From contig JAJYNO010000026.1 of assembly GCA_021786295.1 (NCBI GenBank), forward strand, positions 124,001 through 188,000: a stretch of DNA of 64,000 nucleotides, in the 5' to 3' direction. Of the stretch, positions 17,440-29,740 are shown one piece after another. Position 1 is the stretch's first letter. Each line of letters opens with the position of its first letter. The translations under genes were made by a program, and so were the position numbers. Below the pieces are notes generated by a model, which saw only the letters and a list, made by a program, of their open reading frames with translations, was not told the origin of the DNA and searched no databases. Origin of the DNA: a bacterium (lineage in GTDB: Bacteria; Elusimicrobiota; Elusimicrobia; Elusimicrobiales; UBA9959).

Positions 17440-18471
17440 CTACCAGACCATCTGGAACCCGAACCGGTGGGTGGCGCCCAGCTCGCCGTAGCCGACGTAG
17501 GAGTAATCTATCCGGGTACCCCCCAGCAGGCTGTCCTTGTCAGAGACGCTGTCGAAGCTGAGCCCGAAACCGCCGCTGACCTTGGAGCCGGCGTCCTTCA
17601 GCGAGGTATAGCCAACGCGCAGCTGGAAGAGGCGCATGATGTCCACCTGCAGGCCGGTGTCCGAGATGTAGTCCTGATCGCGGTACTTCACCAGGTCGGA
17701 GGCTACGGTGAAGATCATGATGTCGTCCACGGTATGGAAATCCTTGGCCAGGCCGGCGCGCAGCGAGGAGGGCAGCTGCGCGGATGATTCCTGGAACTTT
17801 TCATCCGAGCCGAAGTCGAGCGCGGAGGCGCCCAGCTGCAGATGGTGCGGCAGCACCAGCAGGACGCCAGCGTCGAACGCCATGGCCGAGGAGGAGGTTC
17901 CGGCAAGGTCCTCGCTGATCTGCTTTACGGTGGCCCCGGCGGAAAAACGGTAGACCTTGGGGCGATAATCGCGCACCGGTTCTATGCGGGTCCAGGGCGG
18001 AGTTATCAGCATGGGATCCAATTTGCCGGCGTCCTGCGGGTAATGCGGCCAGCTCTGCGCGAACGAAAGTTCGGCGAAGCGGTGGCTGGTGGAGGCCTTG
18101 CCTATCGGCATGTCGTTCTGGTCGTAGGCGTCTATCTGCCCGCTGGAAAGCGCTGAATAGGCGGCGCCGACCGTCCCGAAAGGGAAGCGCCAGGAGAGGG
18201 AGAGGTAGCCCTGATTAACGCCCAGGATGTACTGGTTGTACGAGGCGGAAAGGGCCGAATAGCTGAGCAGGCCGAGGCCCGCGGGGTTATAGAGGATGGA
18301 GTCCGGCCCCACCATCGCGGTATAGGCCTCCCCCATTCCCGAGGGGATGGCCGCCACCGGGATCTTCAGGAAATCCGCCGCCGAGGTGCCGGCGGAGGCG
18401 GCGTACAGCGCAACGCGCCCGGCGGCCAGCAGGACCGCGGCGAGAAGGAGTATAGGAGCGCGCTTCGGCAT
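17440..18471 (-). CDS. PorV/PorQ-family (UPF0164) outer-membrane protein, copy 1
   Basis: The 343-aa protein has signal peptide MPKRAPILLLAAVLLAAG, then the family start AADFLKIPVAAIPSGMGEAYTAMVG...ILYNPAGLGLL, shared with the two other PorV-like proteins of this window. The rest is beta-strand-rich and ends DYSYVGYGELGATHRFGFQMVW, the family C-terminus (tyrosine-rich, G-E/D-LG-x-xHR). PorV/PorQ proteins form outer-membrane barrels; in type IX secretion PorV carries cargo. I chose ATG 18471 because the TATACT box at 18525-18530 lies too close to the earlier starts at 18522/18534, and because the 343-aa length matches copy 3. There is no clear Shine-Dalgarno sequence. Confidence 0.8.
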   Translation of the reverse strand: MPKRAPILLLAAVLLAAGRVALYAASAGTSAADFLKIPVAAIPSGMGEAYTAMVGPDSILYNPAGLGLLSYSALSASYNQYILGVNQGYLSLSWRFPFGTVGAAYSALSSGQIDAYDQNDMPIGKASTSHRFAELSFAQSWPHYPQDAGKLDPMLITPPWTRIEPVRDYRPKVYRFSAGATVKQISEDLAGTSSSAMAFDAGVLLVLPHHLQLGASALDFGSDEKFQESSAQLPSSLRAGLAKDFHTVDDIMIFTVASDLVKYRDQDYISDTGLQVDIMRLFQLRVGYTSLKDAGSKVSGGFGLSFDSVSDKDSLLGGTRIDYSYVGYGELGATHRFGFQMVW

Positions 18472-18524
18472 AGTGTGCAAGCGAGGCGGCCGGAAGCGGG
18501 AAGCAGCCTTCCGGAACCGCATAA

Positions 18525-18530
18525 TAGTAT
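18525..18530 (-). promoter_or_regulatory. -10 element (TATACT) for PorV-like copy 1
   Basis: TATACT on the minus strand predicts transcription start near 18515, about 45 nt before the chosen ATG at 18471. It is divergent from the motor-operon promoter. Confidence 0.45.
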
Positions 18531-18601
18531 ACACTAATGGGCGGCTGTTTCAATAACAGATTTGTTACGGCGCGGGGAAAGAACGCCGGCGCGCCTTTTG
18601 A

Positions 18602-18653: not shown

Positions 18654-20162
18654 ATGATCAGACAGATTCCGTTCATGCTCGTTCTGACCGCGCAAGCGCT
18701 GCTCTGCGGCGCCCCGGTTTTCGCCCAGGCCTCCACCAAGACCTCGCTGGAGGCCCAGCTCGCGCTGGAGAGCTCCCTGGAGAAGCGCGTCCAGATGGTG
18801 CTCTCGGAGGCGCTGGGCACGGACGACGTCATAGTCATAATCTCGGCCGAACTCCAGCAGCAGAACAAGAAAGCCCCCGAGTTCCTGCCCGGCGTGCCGC
18901 AGGAGGGCAGGATGGGCGAACCCTCCCTCTCGAGTTCCCTGACCATGGTAAAGTCCATCTCGGCCCAGCTGATCCTGGACAAGGCGATGCCGGAGGCCGA
19001 CGTGAACCTCGCGAGGAAACTCACGGCCGGCCTGCTGGGCCTGCCGCCCGACAGGGAGGACCTGGTCAGCGTGGAAAGGATGGATTTCCGCCGAGCCAAA
19101 CCGATGACGGCCTACGACCTGCTGGCCCCTGCCAACTTCTGGAGCCTGGCCTGGATCATCGTGGTAGTCCTGCTAGCCCTTTTTACGGTCTCGGTCTTCC
19201 TGGCGCCGGCCTCCAGGAGCCTGAGGACCTTCGCCGAAGCCGCTGCTGCGAGGACAGCCGCGCAGGAAACCGCCCCCGCCGCTGGAAGGGAGACGGTACG
19301 GGAACCGGAACCTGACGAACCGGCGCCCGGACAGGACCGGCAGACCGCGCCCCCCCGCCCCGCGGAGACGGACGGGCCAAAGACTCCCTTCCAGTTCCTC
19401 TCCCTGTCCCACCTTTCCAGCCTGGCCTTCTTAATGAAGGAGCGCCCGGCCGAAGACCTCACCATCCTGCTTAGCTACGCCCCGCCCGAGCTGGCAGGCA
19501 AACTGGCGGAAGCGCTGTATCCCAGGAGCGCGGAGGCGCTGGCCGCGCTGCCCCGCGTCACGCTGATGCCGGAAGGGCGCGTCCGGGCCCTGGAGACCGA
19601 GATCAGGAACGCGCTGGATTTCGTGGTGGGCGGAGAGGACAAGACCGTGGAGATCCTGAACGGCCTGGACGAGAGCGTTCAGGAGAAGGCCCTGGCGGCC
19701 GTCTCCCGTCTGAACCCGGCCATGGCGCGGAAGGTCCGCGCCTCCGTAGTGCGGCTGGCCAATGTGCTTGACCTGGAACCGGCGCACGCGCAGGCCCTGG
19801 CCAGGCGCCTGCCGATGCGGGTCCTCGCCGCCGCGCTCAAAGGCACTCCCTACGCCTCACCCTTCGCGGCAAGGCTGGCCGGCGGCATGCAGGAGCGCTT
19901 CCGGCAGGAGCTGGACCTCACAAGGGACCTCGCTCCGGAGGCCTACAAGGGCGACCGCGCGAAGGTGGTGGAGGCCATGCGCCAGATGCTCAAGGAGGGG
20001 CTTATCGCCATGAAGCCGCAGGCCGCGGGGCTCCACGCTGCCAGGCCAGCCGGCCCGCACCCAGCCGCCCCGCATCAGCCGGCGCCCGCCGCGGCTGGGG
20101 CGGCCCCGGCGCAGCCCGCCGCTCAAGCCGCCGCCCCGCATCAGCCGGCGCCTAAACTCTGA
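18654..20162 (+). CDS. FliF(RBM3)-FliG(M+C) fusion protein of a non-flagellar motor-like operon
   Basis: The 502-aa protein has a signal-like N-terminus (MIRQIPFMLVLTAQALLCG). Residues about 30-150 resemble the last periplasmic ring domain of FliF: LEKRVQMVLSEALGTDDVIV, then ISAQLILDKAMPE...LTAGLLGLPPDREDLVSVERMDF. A single TM follows (about 164-185), then a Pro/Glu-rich linker. Residues about 246-465 match FliG middle and C-terminal domains: ERPAEDLTILLSYAPPELAGKL, GGEDKTVEILNGLD, LAAALKGT, and a torque-helix-like segment GGMQERFRQELD with R415, E419 and D421. FliF RBM1/2, its first TM and FliG-N are missing. It ends in a His/Pro/Ala tail with two APHQPAP copies. Coupled MotA/MotB genes follow. 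Family alignment was made by eye, and the function as a rotor is inference. Confidence 0.8.
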   Translation: MIRQIPFMLVLTAQALLCGAPVFAQASTKTSLEAQLALESSLEKRVQMVLSEALGTDDVIVIISAELQQQNKKAPEFLPGVPQEGRMGEPSLSSSLTMVKSISAQLILDKAMPEADVNLARKLTAGLLGLPPDREDLVSVERMDFRRAKPMTAYDLLAPANFWSLAWIIVVVLLALFTVSVFLAPASRSLRTFAEAAAARTAAQETAPAAGRETVREPEPDEPAPGQDRQTAPPRPAETDGPKTPFQFLSLSHLSSLAFLMKERPAEDLTILLSYAPPELAGKLAEALYPRSAEALAALPRVTLMPEGRVRALETEIRNALDFVVGGEDKTVEILNGLDESVQEKALAAVSRLNPAMARKVRASVVRLANVLDLEPAHAQALARRLPMRVLAAALKGTPYASPFAARLAGGMQERFRQELDLTRDLAPEAYKGDRAKVVEAMRQMLKEGLIAMKPQAAGLHAARPAGPHPAAPHQPAPAAAGAAPAQPAAQAAAPHQPAPKL

Positions 20163-20183
20163 CGAAGGACGAGGTAAAGAAAA

Positions 20184-20966
20184 ATGGACCTGATGACTTT
20201 TCTGGGCGCCGCCACCGGCATGGGCGTCATCGTCTTCGTCCTCTCCTCCGGCGGGATGCTGCGCTTCCTGCTCAACTGGGAGGCGATCATCCTCATTTTC
20301 GGAGGCACGCTGGGCTCGGTGATGATAGCCTACCCGTGGGCCGCGCTGAAATGGGTGAAGTCCTCGCTGGTTATGGTGATCTTCCCCCCCAAGCGGGCCC
20401 CGATCAACGAGCTGATCCGCGCGATCGTCCGCTTCGCCGAAATAGCCAAGAGGAGCGGCGTCGACGCTATAGCCGGGGAACTGCGCTCCTCGCCGCACCC
20501 GTTCCTGACCGACGGCCTGCAGATGATGCTCGACGGCGTGGACATCCACATCCTGCGCGAGCGCATGGAGAACGACATCAACACCACCCGCCTGCGTCAC
20601 CAGCAGCAGACCAACATCTTCAACTCGGCCGGCACGTTCGCGCCGATCTTCGGCCTGCTGGGCACGCTGATCGGCGTCGTGCAGGTCCTGCGCAACATCC
20701 AGAACCCGCAGATGATGGGCTCCTCGATGGCCATCGCGATGACCGCGTCTTTCTACGGCATCTTCTCCGCCAACTTCCTCTTCCTGCCGATAGCCAGCAA
20801 GCTGGGCTACTATTCCGACGAGGACATCCTCAGCCGGGAGATCATCGCCAAGGGCGTGCTGTCGGTCTACGAGGGCGACGTGCCGTGGCTGGTCTCCAAG
20901 AAGCTGGAGGGCTACCTGTCGCTGGCCCTCAGGCGCAAGGCGAAAGCCGGGAAGCAGGGAGCCTAG
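20184..20966 (+). CDS. MotA-family proton-channel subunit
   Basis: The 260-aa protein has four predicted helices and the long cytoplasmic loop of MotA rather than the short TolQ/ExbB form. It has NWEAIILIFGGTLGSVMIAYP in TM2, the pore motif FAPIFGLLGTLIGVV with the conserved Pro154 (equivalent to E. coli P173), and a final helix with Pro202 (equivalent to P222). MotA surrounds the MotB dimer and pushes on FliG during proton flow. Here the preceding gene encodes a FliG-like domain, which is the expected partner. It starts 21 nt after the FliF-FliG gene (GAGG site) and lies 21 nt before the first MotB. Confidence 0.93.
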   Translation: MDLMTFLGAATGMGVIVFVLSSGGMLRFLLNWEAIILIFGGTLGSVMIAYPWAALKWVKSSLVMVIFPPKRAPINELIRAIVRFAEIAKRSGVDAIAGELRSSPHPFLTDGLQMMLDGVDIHILRERMENDINTTRLRHQQQTNIFNSAGTFAPIFGLLGTLIGVVQVLRNIQNPQMMGSSMAIAMTASFYGIFSANFLFLPIASKLGYYSDEDILSREIIAKGVLSVYEGDVPWLVSKKLEGYLSLALRRKAKAGKQGA

Positions 20967-20987
20967 CGCGGGACCAAAAGGCCGAAG

Positions 20988-21662
20988 ATGAAGTTCTTCA
21001 TCGAACGCTACACTAAGCGCAAGATAGAGGAGAACCCCCTCTGGCTGGTCGTGCTGTCCGACATCATGACCAACCTGATGCTTTTCTTTTTGATCCTCTA
21101 CGTCTTCGCGATCCAGCCGGAGTCGGACGCGCGGGCGATGTTCATGAGCGGCTTCGACAAGGAGGCCGCCCAGAAGATGAAGGAAAAGAAGGCCGAAGAA
21201 GTGGTCAAGAAGTTCACCGAAGAGGACGTGGCGAAGAAGCTCGACGAGGACCTGCTCAGGGCCGGCATGAAGGACATGGCGCAGGTGCAGGTGACCTCCA
21301 AGGAGATAAAGATAAACATAGCCGCCCCGATACTTTTCCCCTCCGGCAGCGCGGACCCTGCGCCCTCCTCGGCGCGGGTCCTCGGGCCGGTGGCCGGGAT
21401 ACTCAACAGGCTCCCGAACGACGTGATAGTGGAAGGTTTCACCGACAACGTGCCGATAAAGTCCGGCAGGTACGCCACCAACTGGGAACTCTCCGCCGCC
21501 CGGGCCACGGCCATCGTGGACCTGCTGGCGGACAAGTACTCGGTCCCGCAGGCCAGGATGATCGCCGCGGCCTACGGCGAGTACCGCCCCGTCGCGGACA
21601 ACAATACGCGCGAGGGGCGGGCGCGGAACCGCCGCATCGAGATCATAGTGCCGCGCAAATGA
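20988..21662 (+). CDS. MotB-family protein 1 (plug/TM plus OmpA peptidoglycan-binding domain)
   Basis: The 224-aa protein has one N-terminal TM, ENPLWLVVLSDIMTNLMLFF, with Asp25 at the position of the proton-carrying MotB Asp32. A charged linker (KEKKAEEVVKKF) follows, then an OmpA/MotB domain with VEGFTDNVPI, NWELSAARA and NRRIEIIV. Compared with flagellar MotB (about 300 aa) the linker is short. The stop overlaps the start of MotB 2 (ATGA), so the two are made in step. This favours a joint stator or a heterodimer. Confidence 0.92.
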   Translation: MKFFIERYTKRKIEENPLWLVVLSDIMTNLMLFFLILYVFAIQPESDARAMFMSGFDKEAAQKMKEKKAEEVVKKFTEEDVAKKLDEDLLRAGMKDMAQVQVTSKEIKINIAAPILFPSGSADPAPSSARVLGPVAGILNRLPNDVIVEGFTDNVPIKSGRYATNWELSAARATAIVDLLADKYSVPQARMIAAAYGEYRPVADNNTREGRARNRRIEIIVPRK

Positions 21663-22318
21663 GAGCGACCGAGGCGAAAAAGGCCAACACCCAGCTCTGG
21701 ATGGTGCCCTACGCGGACCTGATGTCCACGCTGGTGATACTTTTCCTGGCGCTGTACGGCTTCGCCTACAACTCCAAGCGCCCCGAATACGAGGAGGCTC
21801 TTGCCAGGATGCAGGAGGAACTGGGCATACGGCCTCCGCAGGAGCGCAAGAAGGAGATCGAGGCCGCCTCTAAGGTGGAGAGCGAGCTGAAGGACCGGAT
21901 CAAGGAGGGCAGCCTCGGCATGGAAGTGACGGTCTCGCGGATAAAACTGACCTTCCCCTCCCCGGTGCTCTTCGACTCCGGCTCCGCCGCGCTGAAACCC
22001 GCCGCCAGGCGCGTCCTCGACCCCATAGCGGGCAGCCTCCTTAAGATGGACAACCAGGTGATCGTGGAGGGCTACACGGATTCCTCCCCCGTCGTCGGCC
22101 GCAGGTTCGCCTCGAACAGGGAGCTCTCGCTGATGAGGGCCTTCTCCGTGATAGACTACCTGGTGAAGAAAGGAGTGGACCCGTCGCGCCTGACGGCTTT
22201 CGGCTACGGCGAATACCGCCCTGCCGCGCCGAACGACACGCCCCAGGGACGGCTGAAGAACCGCCGGATAGAGCTGATCATAGTGCGGCAGGCGGGCAAG
22301 GAGGAAGGCACCCCATGA
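21659..22318 (+). CDS. MotB-family protein 2 (plug/TM plus OmpA peptidoglycan-binding domain)
   Basis: The 219-aa protein has one TM, LWMVPYADLMSTLVILFLAL, with Asp20 at the MotB Asp32 position. A linker and an OmpA domain follow: VEGYTDSSPV, FASNRELSLMRAF, GYGEYRP and NRRIELIIV. It is clearly diverged from MotB 1: NWELS has become NRELS, and the TM sequence differs. The 4-nt overlaps on both sides make it part of one translational unit. Whether the two form a mixed B-dimer inside one MotA ring or belong to two stators cannot be told from sequence. Confidence 0.92.
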   Translation: MRATEAKKANTQLWMVPYADLMSTLVILFLALYGFAYNSKRPEYEEALARMQEELGIRPPQERKKEIEAASKVESELKDRIKEGSLGMEVTVSRIKLTFPSPVLFDSGSAALKPAARRVLDPIAGSLLKMDNQVIVEGYTDSSPVVGRRFASNRELSLMRAFSVIDYLVKKGVDPSRLTAFGYGEYRPAAPNDTPQGRLKNRRIELIIVRQAGKEEGTP

Positions 22319-23202
22319 GAAGTCTCACGCTTACGGTTCTGATGCTGGCAGCGCCGGCCGCGGCCGCGCCCCCCCGGGACCAGCCGCTCGACGCCGACCT
22401 GAAGGGCTACTACGACAAGGCCTTCACCTATTACGTGGACGGCGACTATCAGAAGGCCATAGAGCAGTGGAACATGGTCCTGCGGGAGGACCCGAAGCAG
22501 ACCACGGCCAGGAACATGATAGACGAAGCCCGGAGAAAAATGGCCGGCTCCGCCGGGAAGCTGAAGAACGAGTTCATGGGTCTGGTCGACCGGGGCCGCT
22601 ACCAGGACGCTCTGCTCAAGCTGGAGGAGCTCCTCGCCACCGACCCGACTAATCCGTATTACCTCCGCGCCCAGTCCAGGCTGCAGCGGATCGCGGGGAC
22701 GGTCAGGGCCAGCCGGCGCTCCGCGGCCTGGCGCGCGGCGGAGAAGGGGATCAGCGCCTGGCTGGGCGGCGAAGAGGACCTTCCCTTCGCCTACGACGCC
22801 CTGCGCTACGCCGAGGAGCTGGCCCCCGCGGAAAAGGCCTTCCCCAGCCTGGTGGCGGACCTGGAGAGGGAGTCCCCGCAGCTGAAGCTCAACGACACGA
22901 AGCCCCCCGGCACGCCCGTCCTGGAACACAAGAAGGACCTGGCGCTGCAGGATATCTACGACACCAAATACTATCTGGCGGTAAAGGAACTGGAAGAGGT
23001 GCTGAGGCTGGCGCCAGACGACCTGACGGCCCTGAAGCGCCTCGGCTCCGCCTATCTACAGCTCAAGGATTATCCCCGCGCCCGGCGCGCGTGGCAGAAA
23101 GCCCTCCGCCTCTCGCCAGACGACGACCAGCTCAAGCAGTACCTCGCCGCGCTGGACAGACTGAAGCGGCCGGCCGGCGGCTCCGCCGGCGGGGCCAGGT
23201 AG
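22315..23202 (+). CDS. Exported TPR protein of the motor-like operon
   Basis: The 295-aa protein has a short signal peptide (MRSLTLTVLMLAAPAAAA). N-terminal TPR-like helices follow (YYDKAFTYYVDGDYQKAIEQW; GRYQDALLKLEELL), then a middle helical region and two C-terminal TPRs (TKYYLAVKELEEVLRL; YLQLKDYPRARRAWQKAL). It is predicted to be periplasmic. It would be a candidate scaffold or bushing around the MotB/FliF-like parts, comparable in principle to periplasmic TPR helpers in other envelope machines; this is inference. It overlaps MotB 2 by ATGA, with GGAGG 12 nt upstream. A strong GC hairpin is embedded in its last codons. Confidence 0.85.
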   Translation: MRSLTLTVLMLAAPAAAAPPRDQPLDADLKGYYDKAFTYYVDGDYQKAIEQWNMVLREDPKQTTARNMIDEARRKMAGSAGKLKNEFMGLVDRGRYQDALLKLEELLATDPTNPYYLRAQSRLQRIAGTVRASRRSAAWRAAEKGISAWLGGEEDLPFAYDALRYAEELAPAEKAFPSLVADLERESPQLKLNDTKPPGTPVLEHKKDLALQDIYDTKYYLAVKELEEVLRLAPDDLTALKRLGSAYLQLKDYPRARRAWQKALRLSPDDDQLKQYLAALDRLKRPAGGSAGGAR

Positions 23203-23211
23203 TCTGCCTGC

Positions 23212-25128
23212 CTAGAAAGAATAATTATAGCGGGTGAGGAGGTTGAGGCTGGTGCCTGTATTGGCCGTGCAGACCTTGTCCGTCCTTGAGACGCCGCCTA
23301 CCCCGAAAGTGAACCTGGAGTTCTGGCTGCTGACCCAGACCGTCTCCACGTTCACCGACAGGGAACTGTTCCTGGCAGGGGTCTGGACGGAATCGTTCCT
23401 GGCCGAGGTAAGCGTGACCCAGCACTGCACGGCCATCGCGCGCCGGGGCATGGCGTAGGAGACGTTCCCGGTCACGCTGGTGTTCCTGGCAGTGGAGGAG
23501 TCCACCTTGTCCCTGGTGCCGGAATCCACCAGCCCGGCGGACAGGTTCAGCACCCTGGAGAGCGGGAAGTTGGAGTTGAACGAGAACAGGGAAGTGCTGA
23601 GGTCGTGCGACAGGTGAGTATTGTCCCTGAACTCGCTCTGCTGCATGCCCGCGGTGAGCGTGTTCCGGCCCAGCGGCTGGGTGACGCTGAAGTTGAGGGT
23701 GGTGGTCCTGTTGTCCTGCACTCCGGCCTGCTTGGCCTTGGCGGCGCTGGAGCTCAGCGACGTGCTGAGCACCGTCCTCCCGCCCAGGCGCAGCATGTTG
23801 CCTACCGTCGCCTGGGTCTGGGTCGTGGTGGTCTTGGCCGGATCTGAATCCAGGTTGTCGGTATAAGTATTCAGGGAGGCGGAAAAGGAGGTCCAATCCG
23901 CCGGGAAGAGGCCGAACTCCGCGTCGACTGTCCGCCTGTCCGGGATCACCGACGGGCTGGCGAAGGAGTAGAAATCCGGAGCGACGCGCGACATCGAGCC
24001 CCTGGCGGTCAGCAGGCCGGACTTGTACTTGAGTTCCTGCCTCCAGGCGGTCCCGCCCACGCCCGCCGCCCCGGACTGCAGGTCGGCCTTATAGGAGCTC
24101 AGCTGATAATCGCTGTTGAGCGAGAAGCGGTCCCAGAAACGCCAGTCGGCGTTCAGGCCGTAGACCAGGTTCTGCTGTGGCTTGACCAGGAGCGTGTCCG
24201 TAGTGATCGCGATGGAATGCAGGTCGTCGCGGCTCAGCACCGCGTCGGCCGAGACGGTAAGGTTCGGGCGGAGGTGCCAGCCCGCCTTGAAGCCTCCTGA
24301 GTAGCGGGCGTACCTCCCCCCGTCGCTGAGGCCGGGTTCCTGGGGAGCGACTATTCGCCCTATCAGCGCGGTGACGGAGTAGTCCGCGGTGTTCCGGTCG
24401 TAGGAAACGCCACGCATGCCCTGCCCGTCCATGGAGAGCGGCGTCAGCGACGGGGAGATGTCCCCCGCCGCCAAGGTCCCCCACGGGGCGTAATAATCGA
24501 GCAGCACCACGGTCGGCGTGACCGGCTTGTTGTAGGAGTGGACGATATAGGTGTTGAACAGGAAAGAGGACTGCTTTATCCTGCCTACCAGATTGGCCGA
24601 AGTGATCGCCTGCGACCCGTCCCAGGAATTGTCGCTGGAGTTCTTGTAGGTGAATGAGACGTCCCCGCCGACCTTGAAATCCTGCGGGATCGGCGGGCGC
24701 AGCTCCTTCTCCACCACCTGGAATCCCCTGTAGTCGGTAGCCAGTATCCGCTTGCCGTCCTTGATCAGGAAGACCCGGTAAAGCAGCCGCCGGCCCTGCA
24801 GGTTGTCGGGCACCTGGAACGGCAGCTGCTCCCCCTGGGCCGCGCCCGGGGGCACGTCCTCGTCGGGGGAAAGCGCGTCGGTCTGCGCCAGGAACTTCCG
24901 GCTGTCACCGTCTATCTCGTAGATCTCGGCTATCCAGTAGTACGTGCCCCGCTTCCAGACCGTGGAGCCGGTGTTCACCGCCAGCGTCTGAAGGCGCACC
25001 TCCTCGCCAGCCATCACCGGGTCGGGGGCGGCCACGGTGAACTGGAGGCTGGCGCCGTCGTCGGCGTAGCAGGCGCCGGCGGGAAAGGACGCCAGTAACA
25101 GCAGCGGGAGGAGTCTTTTTTTCAGCAT
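23212..25128 (-). CDS. Putative outer-membrane beta-barrel protein with N-terminal Ig-like domain
   Basis: The 638-aa protein has signal peptide MLKKRLLPLLLLASFPAGACYA and an Ig-like domain (about 25-150; LQFTVAAPDPVMAGEEVRLQ). About 450 residues of alternating amphipathic strands follow, ending in LLTRYNYSF with a C-terminal Phe, a typical BAM recognition end. The strand motif AAGDISPSLTPLSMDGQGMRG resembles segments of large outer-membrane translocon barrels, but I cannot assign a family. It ends 9 nt from the convergent end of the motor-like operon. It is the last gene of the surface cluster, with its own TATAAT box just after the upstream stop. Confidence 0.7.
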   Translation of the reverse strand: MLKKRLLPLLLLASFPAGACYADDGASLQFTVAAPDPVMAGEEVRLQTLAVNTGSTVWKRGTYYWIAEIYEIDGDSRKFLAQTDALSPDEDVPPGAAQGEQLPFQVPDNLQGRRLLYRVFLIKDGKRILATDYRGFQVVEKELRPPIPQDFKVGGDVSFTYKNSSDNSWDGSQAITSANLVGRIKQSSFLFNTYIVHSYNKPVTPTVVLLDYYAPWGTLAAGDISPSLTPLSMDGQGMRGVSYDRNTADYSVTALIGRIVAPQEPGLSDGGRYARYSGGFKAGWHLRPNLTVSADAVLSRDDLHSIAITTDTLLVKPQQNLVYGLNADWRFWDRFSLNSDYQLSSYKADLQSGAAGVGGTAWRQELKYKSGLLTARGSMSRVAPDFYSFASPSVIPDRRTVDAEFGLFPADWTSFSASLNTYTDNLDSDPAKTTTTQTQATVGNMLRLGGRTVLSTSLSSSAAKAKQAGVQDNRTTTLNFSVTQPLGRNTLTAGMQQSEFRDNTHLSHDLSTSLFSFNSNFPLSRVLNLSAGLVDSGTRDKVDSSTARNTSVTGNVSYAMPRRAMAVQCWVTLTSARNDSVQTPARNSSLSVNVETVWVSSQNSRFTFGVGGVSRTDKVCTANTGTSLNLLTRYNYSF

Positions 25129-25165: not shown

Positions 25166-28100
25166 TTACCTGATAACGGCGAACTTCTTCACGGCTTTTC
25201 CCGTGGCGCCCGTCGAATCGTCCCTGACGCGCAGGATGTAGAGATAGACCCCGGGGGCTATCCCGTCGCGCGCCACGTCCCAGGTGACGATATACCCCAC
25301 GGAGTACGGGGCCCTGCTGTACGAATCCAGGGTCTTCACCAACCGGCCTGTTATGTCGAAGATCTGCACCGTCGCGGTGAACGCTGCCGCCGACGGGGCG
25401 AAATGGAAGTTGACCGTAGTTCTGGCCGGATTCGGATAAGCGTAAACATCGCCCTTGTCGAAGAGGTCGAACTTCGGGGAGAAGACCAGCCGCTGGCCGG
25501 GCGAGAGCGTGACGGTCTCCATCCGGCTGAAGGCCGTGCCGTTGAAGACGCGCAGCCCGTAGGTCCCCGGCAGCAGGTTGGGCACCGTGAAGGCCCCGGA
25601 GGCGTCGGTGAAGGCGGCCCCGATCCGCCGCCCGCGGCTGTAGACCTCCACGAAGGGCGGCGAACCCTCGGAGGAGGAGACCTCGCGGGTGGTATAGCGG
25701 GTTTCGGCCGGGCGGATCCCGGAGGCCGGCAGGTAGCCGGACGGGATGACGCCGGAGACGGAGGCCAGCTGGTAGGCGACGCTCAGCCTGAAATCCACCC
25801 CGGAGGAGCCGTTGAGGACCGAATCCTTGGAGACGGAACTCTCTATATCCTCGGCGGTCCAGGCCGCCCTGACGGTGAGGTAGAGCGAATTAAGGCCTGG
25901 GATGGAATAACGCCCGAAAGCGTCGGTGTAGTCCGTGCCCTCCAGGGCCCCGGCCTGGCCGAAGGCCTGAACCAGGACCCCGGTGATGGGCTGCGTGGAG
26001 GCGTCCAGCACGCTGCCGGAGAGCGCGCCGCTGCCGGCGGAACCGGGCGGAGCCGACGCTTCGTTCGAAGGAGGCGACCAGTTGCCGGCGTCGTCCTGCG
26101 TCCAGAGCGTGAAGTAGCAGGTCACCCCCGGCTCCAGCGAATTGACGGTGAACTGCTGGGTGGAGCCGGCCGTGACAGCGGAGGTCGTTATGCTGATCTG
26201 CGCCGCAGCAGTGGAGACCCAGGCCCCGCTGTAGGTCGAGTACGCCACCTTGTAGGCCCCGGACAGCAGGTAGCCGGACGCGCCGTTGTCCCCGGCGCTG
26301 CGCCACAGCAGGGTCACGGCCCCCGGGTAAGCCCCGGGGGCGGCGGCCAGGTCCGCCGTGGCCGGCGGCGGGGTCTCGTCCAGGTAGGTAAAGGTGGCGC
26401 CGGAGACGAAGAACTCCCCAGCGTTAGGCGGAGTCGCGGCGTCGAAGGCGCGCACGGTCGCGTAATACGAGGCGCCGTCGGCCAGGGAATCGCGCAGGTA
26501 GGGCGGGAAGGTCCAGGTCCAGAATTCCGTGGTGCCGGCCGCCAGCGGGACCGGCCCGCTACCCCATGACGACAGGGAGGCGTTCCACCATTTTCCGTCG
26601 GAGAGGCGCTGCAGCGCCGCCTCCACGGACGTCAAACCGGAAACGGGGTCTGCCGCGGTCCCGCTTATCGAGACGGCCGAAGGCGCGGAGGCCCCGGCCG
26701 CGGGATAAAGGACCGCGGCCGAAGGCGGCTCGGAGTCGAAGGTGAACGTGCGCGTGTCGAACACCTGCGAATAATCCCCCGCCGAATCCGAGGACCTGGC
26801 CACTACGGCGTACTCCCGGCCGTTCACCAGAGGCAGGCCGCTCAGGGTCAGCGTGAAAGAGCTCGCCTGCTGCGAGGCGTCCTGCCAGACCGCCGACGCA
26901 GAGAGGAAAGCGCTCCCGTCGTAGTAGAGGCCGGTGTAGAGGTCCCTGAGATAGAGCTCCGTGCCCAGCACCGGGTGGCCGTTGGTCTCCGCGGTAGTTC
27001 CCGACACGGCCGTGAAGGTGGAAAGGTACATGGCGGACGGCGAGGAGATATAGACCACCGGGCCCGAGACGTTCTTCGCCACGGCGAACGCGTCGAGAAG
27101 CGTGGTCGTGGACCCGGCCACGTCCACGGCCCGGAGGCTGAAATAGTTGGAAGCGGCGTTGGCCAGCTGGTTGAAGCTGTAGGAGAGCGCGGGAGCGTAC
27201 CAGGTGGCGCCGGCGGCCAGCGGGCCGATATCGGTCCACGGGATCACGTTCCCGTCGGCGAAGCCTTTATCCGTGCTGACGCTGAACTGCGCCTTCTGCA
27301 GGCCGGAGAGGCCGTCCGAGAAGCTCAGCCCGGTGGCGTCCCCCGGATAATCCGCGAACCAGGCCGAGGAAACGGAATAGGTCGAGACGACCGCGGGCGG
27401 CACGGCGTCCTTCAGGACGGAGAAGGTGTCGGCCAGCACGGTGTAGTTGGGCGGGCTGGCGTTGTCGTAGACGCGCACCGAGATGTAGTTTGACGCCCCG
27501 TCCAGCATGGAATCCCAGACCGTCTCCGGGATAGTCCAGGGAACGTCGTAGGAAGGCTGGTCTATGGCCGTGACCGCGTCCATCCAGGGAGTGAACGGCC
27601 GGCCTGGAACGGTGGAGACCTGCAGCTGGAACTTGGACAGGCCGGAAGCCCCGACGTCGGCGAAATAGATGTGGCACAGGAAGGTGTTGGTGCTCTTCCA
27701 GCCCTGGAAATCCGGCTGCTGGTCGTTTATGGTCGGACTGTCCACGTCCAGGGTCGGGTCGAACGTGGTGCGGACAGGCGGCAGCGCGGCGAAGCGGGAG
27801 GCGCGGCCGGCCGCGTCCAGCACCCTGACCTCGGCGTAGTAGGTCGTGCTCTGGGAGAGCCCGGTAAGCGTCAGCGAGCTGCCGGACGCGGTGAAGGCAG
27901 CCGAGCCGGAGAAATCCGGCGAGGTGGAGCTGACCAGCTCGTAAAGCGTTCCGGACGGGTTGCCAGCGGGGTCCCAGCTGGCCGTAGCCGAATCCACCCA
28001 GACCCCGAACCACGGGGCCGTGGCGGGGATCGCGGCGTACGTGATGGTGGAGCCGGACAGGGAATAGTCCGTCTCCACGCCGGTCCAGTTGCGGGCCTTG

Positions 28101-29740
28101 GCGCGGAAATAATAGGTCGTGTCCGGCCGCAGCTCCCCGAAATCGGCCGCCGGAGAAGAGTTCCAGCCCGAGGATCTCAGGCCGGAGCTGAAATCCGGAC
28201 TTTCGGCCACCTGCACCAGATAGCCGGCGCCGGGAACCGGAGCGTAGAGCTCGTCCGAAAGAGGAGAAGCTCCGGAGGAGCCGCCGAAGAGATAGAGGCG
28301 GGACCCAGCCAATTCGGCCGCAGCGAATTGCCGCGGGCCGGGCAGCGGCGCCCCCCCTTCCCACGGCGAAAGCCCCTCGGGCGTCACCGTGGTCTGAAAG
28401 ACCTGGGCCTGAGCCGAGTAGCCGTTGTTGCCTCCTATCACGTAGAGGCGGGTGCCGGACGCGGCGGCCTGGTGCCCGTAGCGCGGAGAGGGCAGCGGGG
28501 CGTAATCGGACCAGTGGCCGGACGCGAGATCGTAGGTCCAGACCTCAGAACGGGCGGAAACGCCGTCCTTTCCGCCGGCTATCACCAGTTCCCCGGGCAG
28601 CAGGGTCATCGAGTGGGCGTAGCGCGGGGCCGGCAGCGTAGAGGTGGTCACCCAGGTCTGCAGCGACCCGTCATCCGACAGGTCCGCGTATTCGAGGCCG
28701 GCGAGCACCCCGGAGCCGCTGCTGTACCCACCGGAGACGTAGATCCTGCTCCCCGCCAGGGCGGCGGCCTGGAAATAGGCCGGCACCGGGAGGGAAGCCT
28801 CCCTCTCCCAGCTCCCCGGCGCGCCGGAGGATGAGATATCGGCCGACCAGACGTCGGCCCGGGAACCGTCTGACGCGTAGCCGCCAAGCACATAGAGCCG
28901 GCCCCTGGCCGCCACCGTCTGGTGCCCGTAAAGCCCGGCCGGCATGTACCCCGCCGTCCGCCAGCTCCCTACGGTCCCGTCCTGTGCGACCGGAGCCATG
29001 TACACCGCGCTGGAGAAATAGACCCCGTCAAAGCCGCCGCTCACGTAGACGTAGGTGCCGTAGACCACGGAGGCTTCCCCGTAGAGGGAGCGCGGGAGCT
29101 GCGCCGCTGGCGACGTCCAGCCCTGTATCTGCGGCGGCGGAGCGTCCTGGTAGCCGGCGAAAGAAAGGGAAAGGGTGTTGTGGCCGGCGTCCGACAGGGT
29201 CAGAGCGCCGGTCGACGGGACCACGGCCAGCGTTACCGCCGTGGTAGAGGCCGGCGAGGAATAGTCGCCATCCATGTAGTTGGCTACGGCGAAGGAGTAA
29301 TAGCTGGTGTTCGGGGCGAGCGACTCCACCGGATAGCCGTTCTGGTCGGTGGAATAATAGACCATGTACGGGTCGGCCTCGGCCCACGTGGAGATGAAAA
29401 TGTCGTAAGTGGTTCCGGCCGGCTCGGCGGCAGTGCCGTAAACTACGGTATAACTGCTGACGCCGTCGGGAGAATAAGCGAACGCGGCCGGAGAGGAGAC
29501 CAGGCGCGAATAGAAGCCCGACTCCAGCGCGGACGCGGAGCCGCCGACGATGGACAGTTCGTGAGCCACGGCGGACAGCCCGCCCTGGACCACGGAGACG
29601 CCGGCGGCCTGGCCGGAACTGGCCGACGAATAGTCGTCCGCGTCCCCGAGCACGGTGACGGCGCCAGCCGTTTTGTTCCCGGCCAGGGCCGGCCGGCCCA
29701 GCGCCAGGGCGAGGCAGACCGCGGCCAACAACGTCCTCAT
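25166..29740 (-). CDS. Giant surface protein: Kelch propeller, Fn3 repeats, FlgD-like sorting-type C-terminus
   Basis: The 1524-aa protein has signal peptide MRTLLAAVCLALALGRPALA. An Fn3-like N-terminal part is followed by about six Kelch motifs between residues about 210 and 500 (repeating YVSGG / YVLGG / YVIGGN / YLFGGS with following W-x-L-P-x-P-R), and several Fn3 and Ig-like domains (about 510-1240). Two CarboxypepD_reg-like beta sandwiches come next (TQPITGVLVQAFGQ; DASGAFTVPNLLPGTY). The C-terminus, from YAYPNPARTTVNFHF to KKFAVIR, matches FlgD-like/type IX-like sorting domains and closely resembles the end of the protein at 39053. It is predicted to be cell-surface or secreted. The ligand is unknown. 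Confidence 0.85.
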   Translation of the reverse strand: MRTLLAAVCLALALGRPALAGNKTAGAVTVLGDADDYSSASSGQAAGVSVVQGGLSAVAHELSIVGGSASALESGFYSRLVSSPAAFAYSPDGVSSYTVVYGTAAEPAGTTYDIFISTWAEADPYMVYYSTDQNGYPVESLAPNTSYYSFAVANYMDGDYSSPASTTAVTLAVVPSTGALTLSDAGHNTLSLSFAGYQDAPPPQIQGWTSPAAQLPRSLYGEASVVYGTYVYVSGGFDGVYFSSAVYMAPVAQDGTVGSWRTAGYMPAGLYGHQTVAARGRLYVLGGYASDGSRADVWSADISSSGAPGSWEREASLPVPAYFQAAALAGSRIYVSGGYSSGSGVLAGLEYADLSDDGSLQTWVTTSTLPAPRYAHSMTLLPGELVIAGGKDGVSARSEVWTYDLASGHWSDYAPLPSPRYGHQAAASGTRLYVIGGNNGYSAQAQVFQTTVTPEGLSPWEGGAPLPGPRQFAAAELAGSRLYLFGGSSGASPLSDELYAPVPGAGYLVQVAESPDFSSGLRSSGWNSSPAADFGELRPDTTYYFRAKARNWTGVETDYSLSGSTITYAAIPATAPWFGVWVDSATASWDPAGNPSGTLYELVSSTSPDFSGSAAFTASGSSLTLTGLSQSTTYYAEVRVLDAAGRASRFAALPPVRTTFDPTLDVDSPTINDQQPDFQGWKSTNTFLCHIYFADVGASGLSKFQLQVSTVPGRPFTPWMDAVTAIDQPSYDVPWTIPETVWDSMLDGASNYISVRVYDNASPPNYTVLADTFSVLKDAVPPAVVSTYSVSSAWFADYPGDATGLSFSDGLSGLQKAQFSVSTDKGFADGNVIPWTDIGPLAAGATWYAPALSYSFNQLANAASNYFSLRAVDVAGSTTTLLDAFAVAKNVSGPVVYISSPSAMYLSTFTAVSGTTAETNGHPVLGTELYLRDLYTGLYYDGSAFLSASAVWQDASQQASSFTLTLSGLPLVNGREYAVVARSSDSAGDYSQVFDTRTFTFDSEPPSAAVLYPAAGASAPSAVSISGTAADPVSGLTSVEAALQRLSDGKWWNASLSSWGSGPVPLAAGTTEFWTWTFPPYLRDSLADGASYYATVRAFDAATPPNAGEFFVSGATFTYLDETPPPATADLAAAPGAYPGAVTLLWRSAGDNGASGYLLSGAYKVAYSTYSGAWVSTAAAQISITTSAVTAGSTQQFTVNSLEPGVTCYFTLWTQDDAGNWSPPSNEASAPPGSAGSGALSGSVLDASTQPITGVLVQAFGQAGALEGTDYTDAFGRYSIPGLNSLYLTVRAAWTAEDIESSVSKDSVLNGSSGVDFRLSVAYQLASVSGVIPSGYLPASGIRPAETRYTTREVSSSEGSPPFVEVYSRGRRIGAAFTDASGAFTVPNLLPGTYGLRVFNGTAFSRMETVTLSPGQRLVFSPKFDLFDKGDVYAYPNPARTTVNFHFAPSAAAFTATVQIFDITGRLVKTLDSYSRAPYSVGYIVTWDVARDGIAPGVYLYILRVRDDSTGATGKAVKKFAVIR

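What the first reader, a model, noticed from the sequence alone, without database searches (positions are those of the whole stretch)
18654..23202. A compact non-flagellar motor-like operon: FliF-FliG fusion, MotA, two MotBs, TPR protein
Seen: the first protein carries a FliF RBM3-like domain, one TM and FliG middle plus C-terminal domains in one chain, with GGxxxxxEILN and LAxALKG motifs retained. It is followed within 21 nt by a true MotA and two MotBs. Known: FliF forms the MS ring, FliG-C is the surface on which MotA generates torque, and natural flagella need FlhA/FliP, rod, hook and filament genes. None of these is present here. Inference: rotor and stator have been kept and the rest discarded, giving a reduced proton-driven machine that could turn or push envelope components. 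The convergent 20-kb surface cluster is the obvious candidate load. I know of no described system with this gene set.
Basis: partly seen in the sequence, partly recalled or inferred. Interest (0 to 1): 0.9.

Follow-up and report, generated by a model that had tools for sequence, protein, structure and literature searches.

The report
Flagellar motor core without a flagellum
Bacteria of two phyla that mostly cannot build a flagellum carry a five-gene set keeping only the flagellum's engine (rotor ring fused to the torque protein, plus ion-driven stators), which suggests an undescribed machine that uses flagellar torque to move parts of the cell envelope or surface.

Summary
Window 18654-23202 is a tight operon: signal peptide + FliF RBM3 + one transmembrane helix + FliG middle/C domains in one chain, then MotA, two MotBs and a secreted TPR protein. 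The host is an Elusimicrobia-class bacterium (draft, 79% complete).

The same five-gene order recurs in dozens of Elusimicrobia loci and in nine Nitrospirota genomes. Of 147 genomes of the class, 87 encode FliG_C, nearly all as fusions; FlhA occurs in 3 and FliM/FliN in 2, both of the latter with ordinary separate fliF and fliG. No Nitrospirota carrier has FlhA, and each has the fusion as its only FliG_C. The fusions form one tree clade apart from the three flagellar FliGs used.

Torque parts are kept selectively: MotA prolines, MotB Asp, MotA K/R90 and FliG E288/289 are conserved, while the E98-R281 pair and the FliM-binding motif are lost. Nitrospirota keep the Asp in only one of two MotBs.

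Best reading: an ion-driven rotor-stator unit without export gate, switch or filament, probably acting on outer-membrane or surface proteins. The load is unproven; type 9 secretion exists without it, so it is not simply that system's motor. No description was found in the papers searched.

The parts
18654..20162 (+). FliF(RBM3)-TM-FliG(M+C) fusion, 502 aa: signal peptide about 1-26, RBM3 28-145, TM within helix 159-204, FliG_MC 245-452, Pro/Ala tail
20184..20966 (+). MotA of the flagellar stator type (260 aa); both channel prolines kept
20988..21662 (+). MotB1: TM helix with proton-binding Asp, plug, OmpA/peptidoglycan-binding domain
21659..22318 (+). MotB2: second MotB, also with the Asp here (replaced by Thr/Ala in Nitrospirota)
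22315..23202 (+). TPR protein with signal-peptide-like N-terminus, inferred periplasmic; fifth gene of the conserved cluster
23212..25128 (-). Outer-membrane barrel (about 26 strands) with N-terminal Ig-like domain; recurrent neighbour in Elusimicrobia, candidate partner
25166..29740 (-). Kelch/fn3 surface protein with type 9 sorting tail; recurrent neighbour, candidate load
17440..18534 (-). PorV/PorQ-family outer-membrane protein, divergent from the operon; neighbour within the own family

Best explanation
The five genes encode an ion-driven rotor-stator unit that is not a flagellum. Shown by sequence and structure comparison: the fusion joins the S-ring-forming RBM3 domain of FliF through one membrane helix to the torque-receiving middle and C domains of FliG; MotA and two MotBs form the stator, tied to peptidoglycan by OmpA domains. 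Inferred: the fusion assembles into a membrane ring, and proton or sodium flow through MotA5-MotB1-MotB2 turns it, using one of the two known MotA-FliG charge pairs. Inferred and weaker: the ring's periplasmic face, through the TPR protein and (in Elusimicrobia) the neighbouring barrel and PorV-type proteins, moves outer-membrane or surface proteins, as in gliding motility. No switch (FliM/FliN) was found, so rotation is probably one-way or regulated otherwise.
For: Domain identity. Gene order conserved in Elusimicrobia and in nine Nitrospirota genomes. Non-flagellar: 87/147 class genomes have FliG_C but FlhA occurs in 3 and FliM/N in 2; the two FliM/N genomes have ordinary separate fliF and fliG; the nine Nitrospirota carriers have no FlhA and one FliG_C each, the fusion. 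Selection on the torque interface: FliG acidic residue at 289 (A 47/47, Nitrospirota 9/9) or 288 (B 10/10); MotA K/R90 in 68/69; MotA prolines 68/69 and 69/69; MotB Asp 57/61 and 49/60; peptidoglycan residues about 100%; the partner pair MotA E98 / FliG R281 mostly lost on both sides. Tree: 50 fusions on one side of a 100/99 branch from the 3 flagellar FliGs. Surface/OM neighbours. Engineered FliF-FliG fusions form rings in non-motile hosts (PMC6079021) and still rotate (PMC4768692).
Against: No experiment; rotation and ring formation are inferred. AlphaFold domain packing is uncertain (pTM 0.44). The load differs between phyla (OM barrel and T9SS-tailed proteins versus multiheme cytochromes), and no single load protein is common to all. 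No complex prediction could be run. Part of the locus set was collected with MotA as bait, which biases the MotA linkage counts (set fetched without MotA as bait: 36 of 40).
Confidence: 0.66

Rival explanations
1. It is the missing energiser of type 9 secretion: FliFG-MotAB replaces GldLM and powers SprA/PorV-dependent export of surface proteins.
For: An SprA homologue occurs in 139/147 class genomes, own genome 3.9e-41 but below the equivalog cut-off; no GldL found in any; all 87 FliG_C genomes have type 9 sorting tails against 25 of 60 without FliG_C; PorV-family proteins and tailed cargo are neighbours.
Against: Full-size FliG_C-negative genomes such as G003, G013 and G017 still have 9-11 tailed proteins; the small-genome order keeps SprA without the fusion; Nitrospirota carriers lack SprA apart from one marginal hit. 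The GldL search had no working positive control. Genome size and ancestry confound the correlation.
Confidence: 0.17
2. The unit moves or tensions the envelope itself (peptidoglycan/outer-membrane remodelling, Tol-Pal-like) or an extracellular electron conduit, rather than driving motility or secretion.
For: Two OmpA-domain MotBs and an inferred periplasmic TPR protein recall Tol-Pal/CpoB; Nitrospirota neighbours are multiheme cytochromes; the Elusimicrobia OM barrel has a chain of the Mtr complex as nearest fold.
Against: The flagellar torque interface and FliG_C would not be needed for Tol-like action; barrel similarity is general (TM about 0.5); no barrel homologue was found in the Nitrospirota flanks.
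Confidence: 0.1
3. The ring and channel are a static scaffold or ion channel; no rotation takes place.
For: R281, R297 and the EHPQ motif are lost, and MotB2 lost its Asp in Nitrospirota.
Against: The other charge pair, channel prolines and at least one MotB Asp per operon are conserved over two phyla.
Confidence: 0.05
4. Remnant or unusual variant of a flagellum, or a contaminating contig.
For: All parts are homologous to flagellar proteins; three class genomes have FlhA.
Against: The 92-100% complete same-genus genomes and the nine Nitrospirota carriers lack FlhA; flagellate relatives have ordinary separate fliF and fliG; conserved synteny and residues speak against decay and contamination.
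Confidence: 0.02

Closest known systems
Bacterial flagellar motor (FliF MS ring, FliG, MotAB)
   Same: Homologous RBM3, FliG_MC, MotA and MotB; same channel residues; one of the two known MotA-FliG charge pairs
   Different: No export gate (FlhA), no FliM/FliN; RBM1/2, FliF's first TM helix and FliG_N missing from the window protein; one chain; two MotBs plus TPR protein; E98-R281 pair lost
Chlamydia FliF-FliG fusion (PMC4768692)
   Same: FliF-FliG fusion in bacteria not thought to be flagellated
   Different: Chlamydia's keeps RBM2 and FliG_M and occurs beside FlhA and an injectisome; per that paper its cytosolic part matches FliG_M; here RBM3 plus FliG_M and FliG_C with MotAB and no FlhA
Bacteroidota GldLM / T9SS gliding motor (PMC12635249, PMC13104615)
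   Same: Ion motor of the inner membrane acting on the outer membrane, associated with PorV-type and type-9-sorted proteins
   Different: GldL not detected; here a true MotAB with a FliG rotor; T9SS exists without it and Nitrospirota lack SprA
Myxococcus AglRQS gliding motor
   Same: One MotA-like and two MotB-like subunits (from general knowledge), no flagellum
   Different: AglRS is placed in the generic ion transporter group (PMC12505986) and has no FliG partner to my knowledge; here MotA is of flagellar type with a FliG partner

Membership tests
Bacterial flagellum | Flagellar export gate (FlhA) | tested here: not met
   absent from own genome, same-genus genomes and nine Nitrospirota carriers; controls positive
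Bacterial flagellum | Switch proteins FliM/FliN | tested here: not met
   2/147 genomes, both with separate fliF and fliG and no fusion found
Bacterial flagellum | FliG torque domain with MotAB stator | tested here: met
Bacterial flagellum | Rod, hook and filament genes | not tested
   not searched one by one; FlhA and FliM/N used as markers
T9SS / GldLM motor | GldL | tested here: inconclusive
   0/147 but no control genome rang
T9SS / GldLM motor | Co-occurrence with the SprA translocon | tested here: not met
   SprA present with and without the fusion in Elusimicrobia; essentially absent in Nitrospirota carriers
Chlamydia-type FliF-FliG fusion | FlhA in the same genome | tested here: not met
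   Chlamydia gene set from PMC4768692
Flagellar-type stator (FIT, PMC12505986) | Full-length MotA with torque-generating cytoplasmic domain and channel prolines; MotB with Asp, plug and OmpA | tested here: met
   MotA aligns over residues 1-246 with flagellar MotA

The most novel reading that the evidence does not exclude
A third class of MS-ring machine beside the flagellum and the injectisome: a FliG-MotAB rotary motor with no export gate or switch, with a heterodimeric MotB1-MotB2 stator (one-Asp in Nitrospirota), that drives surface or gliding movement in two phyla.
Probability: 0.35. Interest if true: 0.95.

Novelty: categorically new. Interest (0 to 1): 0.88.

Why it matters
FliG and flagellar-type MotAB have been treated as flagellum-specific: a 2025 survey of 205 genomes places flagellar stators in one group apart from non-flagellar ones, and its text does not mention Elusimicrobia. 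Here that pair occurs in lineages without export gate or switch, in several paralogous forms. That separates torque generation from flagellar export, gives a minimal rotor-stator set to build and test, offers a natural experiment on which charge pair is needed, and predicts a power source for envelope or surface movement in bacteria whose motility is little known. The parts are homologous to known ones; 'categorically new' refers to the composition and context, with function unproven.

Tried and rejected
Alignment-based scan with the 21 fusions failed for lack of conserved stretches; MotA was used instead, which biases the linkage counts in that set. Flagellar remnant and contamination rejected on FlhA, FliM/N and synteny data. 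Simple 'T9SS motor' reading downgraded. Mtr-like fold of the OM barrel taken as general barrel similarity. GldL absence not used as proof because no control rang. Papers: nine searches found no description of a non-flagellar FliG-MotAB unit; the groundwater Elusimicrobia paper looked up was not held. A first PorV count was inflated by TPR matches and replaced.

Full report
OBSERVATION. The window lies in a 2.3-Mb draft, 79% complete. Its closest relatives in named collections are Elusimicrobia MAGs. Pfam gives FliG_C, MotA, MotB_plug+OmpA twice, and TPR above cut-off; FliF_C is below cut-off in this one protein but is found in 25 of 45 homologues, with FliG_C in 45 and FliG_M in 24. PDB sequence searches find FliG and MotA. 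The AlphaFold model (pLDDT 79, pTM 0.44) has the helix-strand-strand-helix-strand RBM fold, a membrane helix and FliG_MC; Foldseek returns FliG, FliF S-ring structures and FliG bound to MotAB. The FliF match rests on Pfam in relatives, the fold search and the PGVP/RBM3 layout together; its Foldseek E-values alone are weak (about 0.02-0.1).

DISTRIBUTION. With the fusion as query, 87 of 147 sampled genomes of the class match. With the curated FliG_C family also 87 match, and nearly all complete matched ORFs are much longer than a free FliG. The small-genome group f2 lacks it almost entirely. The own genome has a second fusion (655 aa, with TPR) at C8, in a cluster with a PorV-TPR protein, a coiled-coil protein, MotA, MotB and a predicted lipoprotein. 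I call the window form type A, this form B, and more distant ones C. Of 40 loci fetched without MotA as bait, 36 hold a MotA. All 20 type-A loci of that set carry fusion-MotA, and the five-gene order is complete where the contig allows. A MotA-profile scan of 84,980 species genomes brought in 71 loci, including nine Nitrospirota genomes with the same order fusion-MotA-MotB-MotB-TPR. In Nitrospirota the neighbours are multiheme cytochromes and an RCC1-repeat protein.

NOT A FLAGELLUM. FlhA is absent from the own genome, from the six same-genus genomes that are 92-100% complete, and from all but 3 of 147 class genomes. FliM/FliN occur in 2, both with FlhA and ordinary separate fliF and fliG. One fusion-bearing genome (G125) also has FlhA. 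The nine Nitrospirota carriers have no FlhA and exactly one FliG_C, the fusion. Rod, hook and filament genes were not searched singly. In a tree of 53 FliG_MC domains the 50 fusions lie on one side of a 100/99 branch from three flagellar FliGs; with only three long-branched outgroups this supports, but does not prove, a single origin of the family, and it does not tell the direction of change.

MECHANISM EVIDENCE. Shown: the FliG GG motif is nearly invariant; the acidic residue at E. coli position 289 is E in all type A and Nitrospirota fusions, and type B has E at 288. MotA position 90 is K/R in 68/69 and both channel prolines are kept. The second known pair, MotA E98 with FliG R281 (pairs as given in PMC12505986), is mostly lost on both sides: R281 is G in 65 of 66 A, B and Nitrospirota fusions, and MotA E98 is mostly A/S/Q. 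The free flagellar FliG of a flagellate Elusimicrobium keeps R281. Type C is more variable. The EHPQ motif (FliM binding, general knowledge) is degenerate, in line with the absence of FliM. The MotB Asp is present in 57/61 MotB1 and 49/60 MotB2; all nine Nitrospirota carriers have Thr or Ala in MotB2. Peptidoglycan-binding residues are invariant or nearly so. Inferred: ring assembly, rotation, heterodimeric stator, TPR protein in the periplasm.

LOAD. In Elusimicrobia the barrel protein at 23212-25128 (Ig domain + about 26 strands, pLDDT 87) lies near the motor in many loci (47 of 101 fusion loci within 9 kb); a PorV-family protein is found in 49 of 111 loci; the 25166-29740 protein carries a type 9 sorting tail. 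SprA homologues are near-universal in the class. All 87 FliG_C genomes have type 9 tails, against 25 of 60 others. But type 9 tails and SprA also occur without the fusion, and Nitrospirota carriers lack SprA apart from one marginal hit. So the motor is not simply the T9SS engine; surface or gliding movement is the favoured but unproven load.

COMPARISON. The Chlamydia FliF-FliG fusion (PMC4768692) is the closest published protein, but it occurs with FlhA and its cytosolic part is described as FliG_M only. Engineered Salmonella fusions make rings and rotate (PMC6079021, PMC4768692). The 2025 MotAB survey (PMC12505986) assigns this stator type to flagella, and its main text does not mention Elusimicrobia. 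A 2019 genome paper noted the absence of flagellar genes in Elusimicrobia (PMC7031533); here a few Elusimicrobia do have flagellar genes.

VERDICT. The paper library is partial, so prior description cannot be excluded.

Noticed in passing
L070:8676-14087 (own genome C31) and class survey: SprA-like type 9 translocon (3.9e-41, below equivalog cut-off) in 139 of 147 Elusimicrobia genomes, with type 9 sorting tails, outside Bacteroidota; no GldL found but the search had no working control.
   Followed up: partly
L146 (G006) and L147 (G029): Two Elusimicrobia genomes have ordinary flagellar genes (separate fliF and fliG, fliM, fliN; FlhA), although the class is described as lacking them.
   Followed up: partly
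L128-L138, e.g. L135: In Nitrospirota the five-gene motor cluster sits between multiheme cytochrome genes and RCC1/NHL-repeat protein genes.
   Followed up: partly
L130, L131, L133-L138, L128 MotB2: MotB2 has Thr or Ala where MotB normally has the proton-binding Asp, while MotB1 keeps it.
   Followed up: yes
L003:10765-13251: 828-aa coiled-coil protein with a Pro-rich N-terminus between the type B fusion and its MotA; no Pfam match.
   Followed up: no
L061:10848-12806: PorV-TPR protein near a type C fusion has a weak match to the PorP/SprF family.
   Followed up: no
window:29789-35521 (-): 1910-aa protein with a borderline C1q-like domain at its C-terminus.
   Followed up: no
window:23212-25128 (-): Predicted barrel's best PDB fold match is the 'B' chain of the Mtr electron-conduit complex (6r2q, TM 0.5); probably general barrel similarity.
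   Followed up: partly
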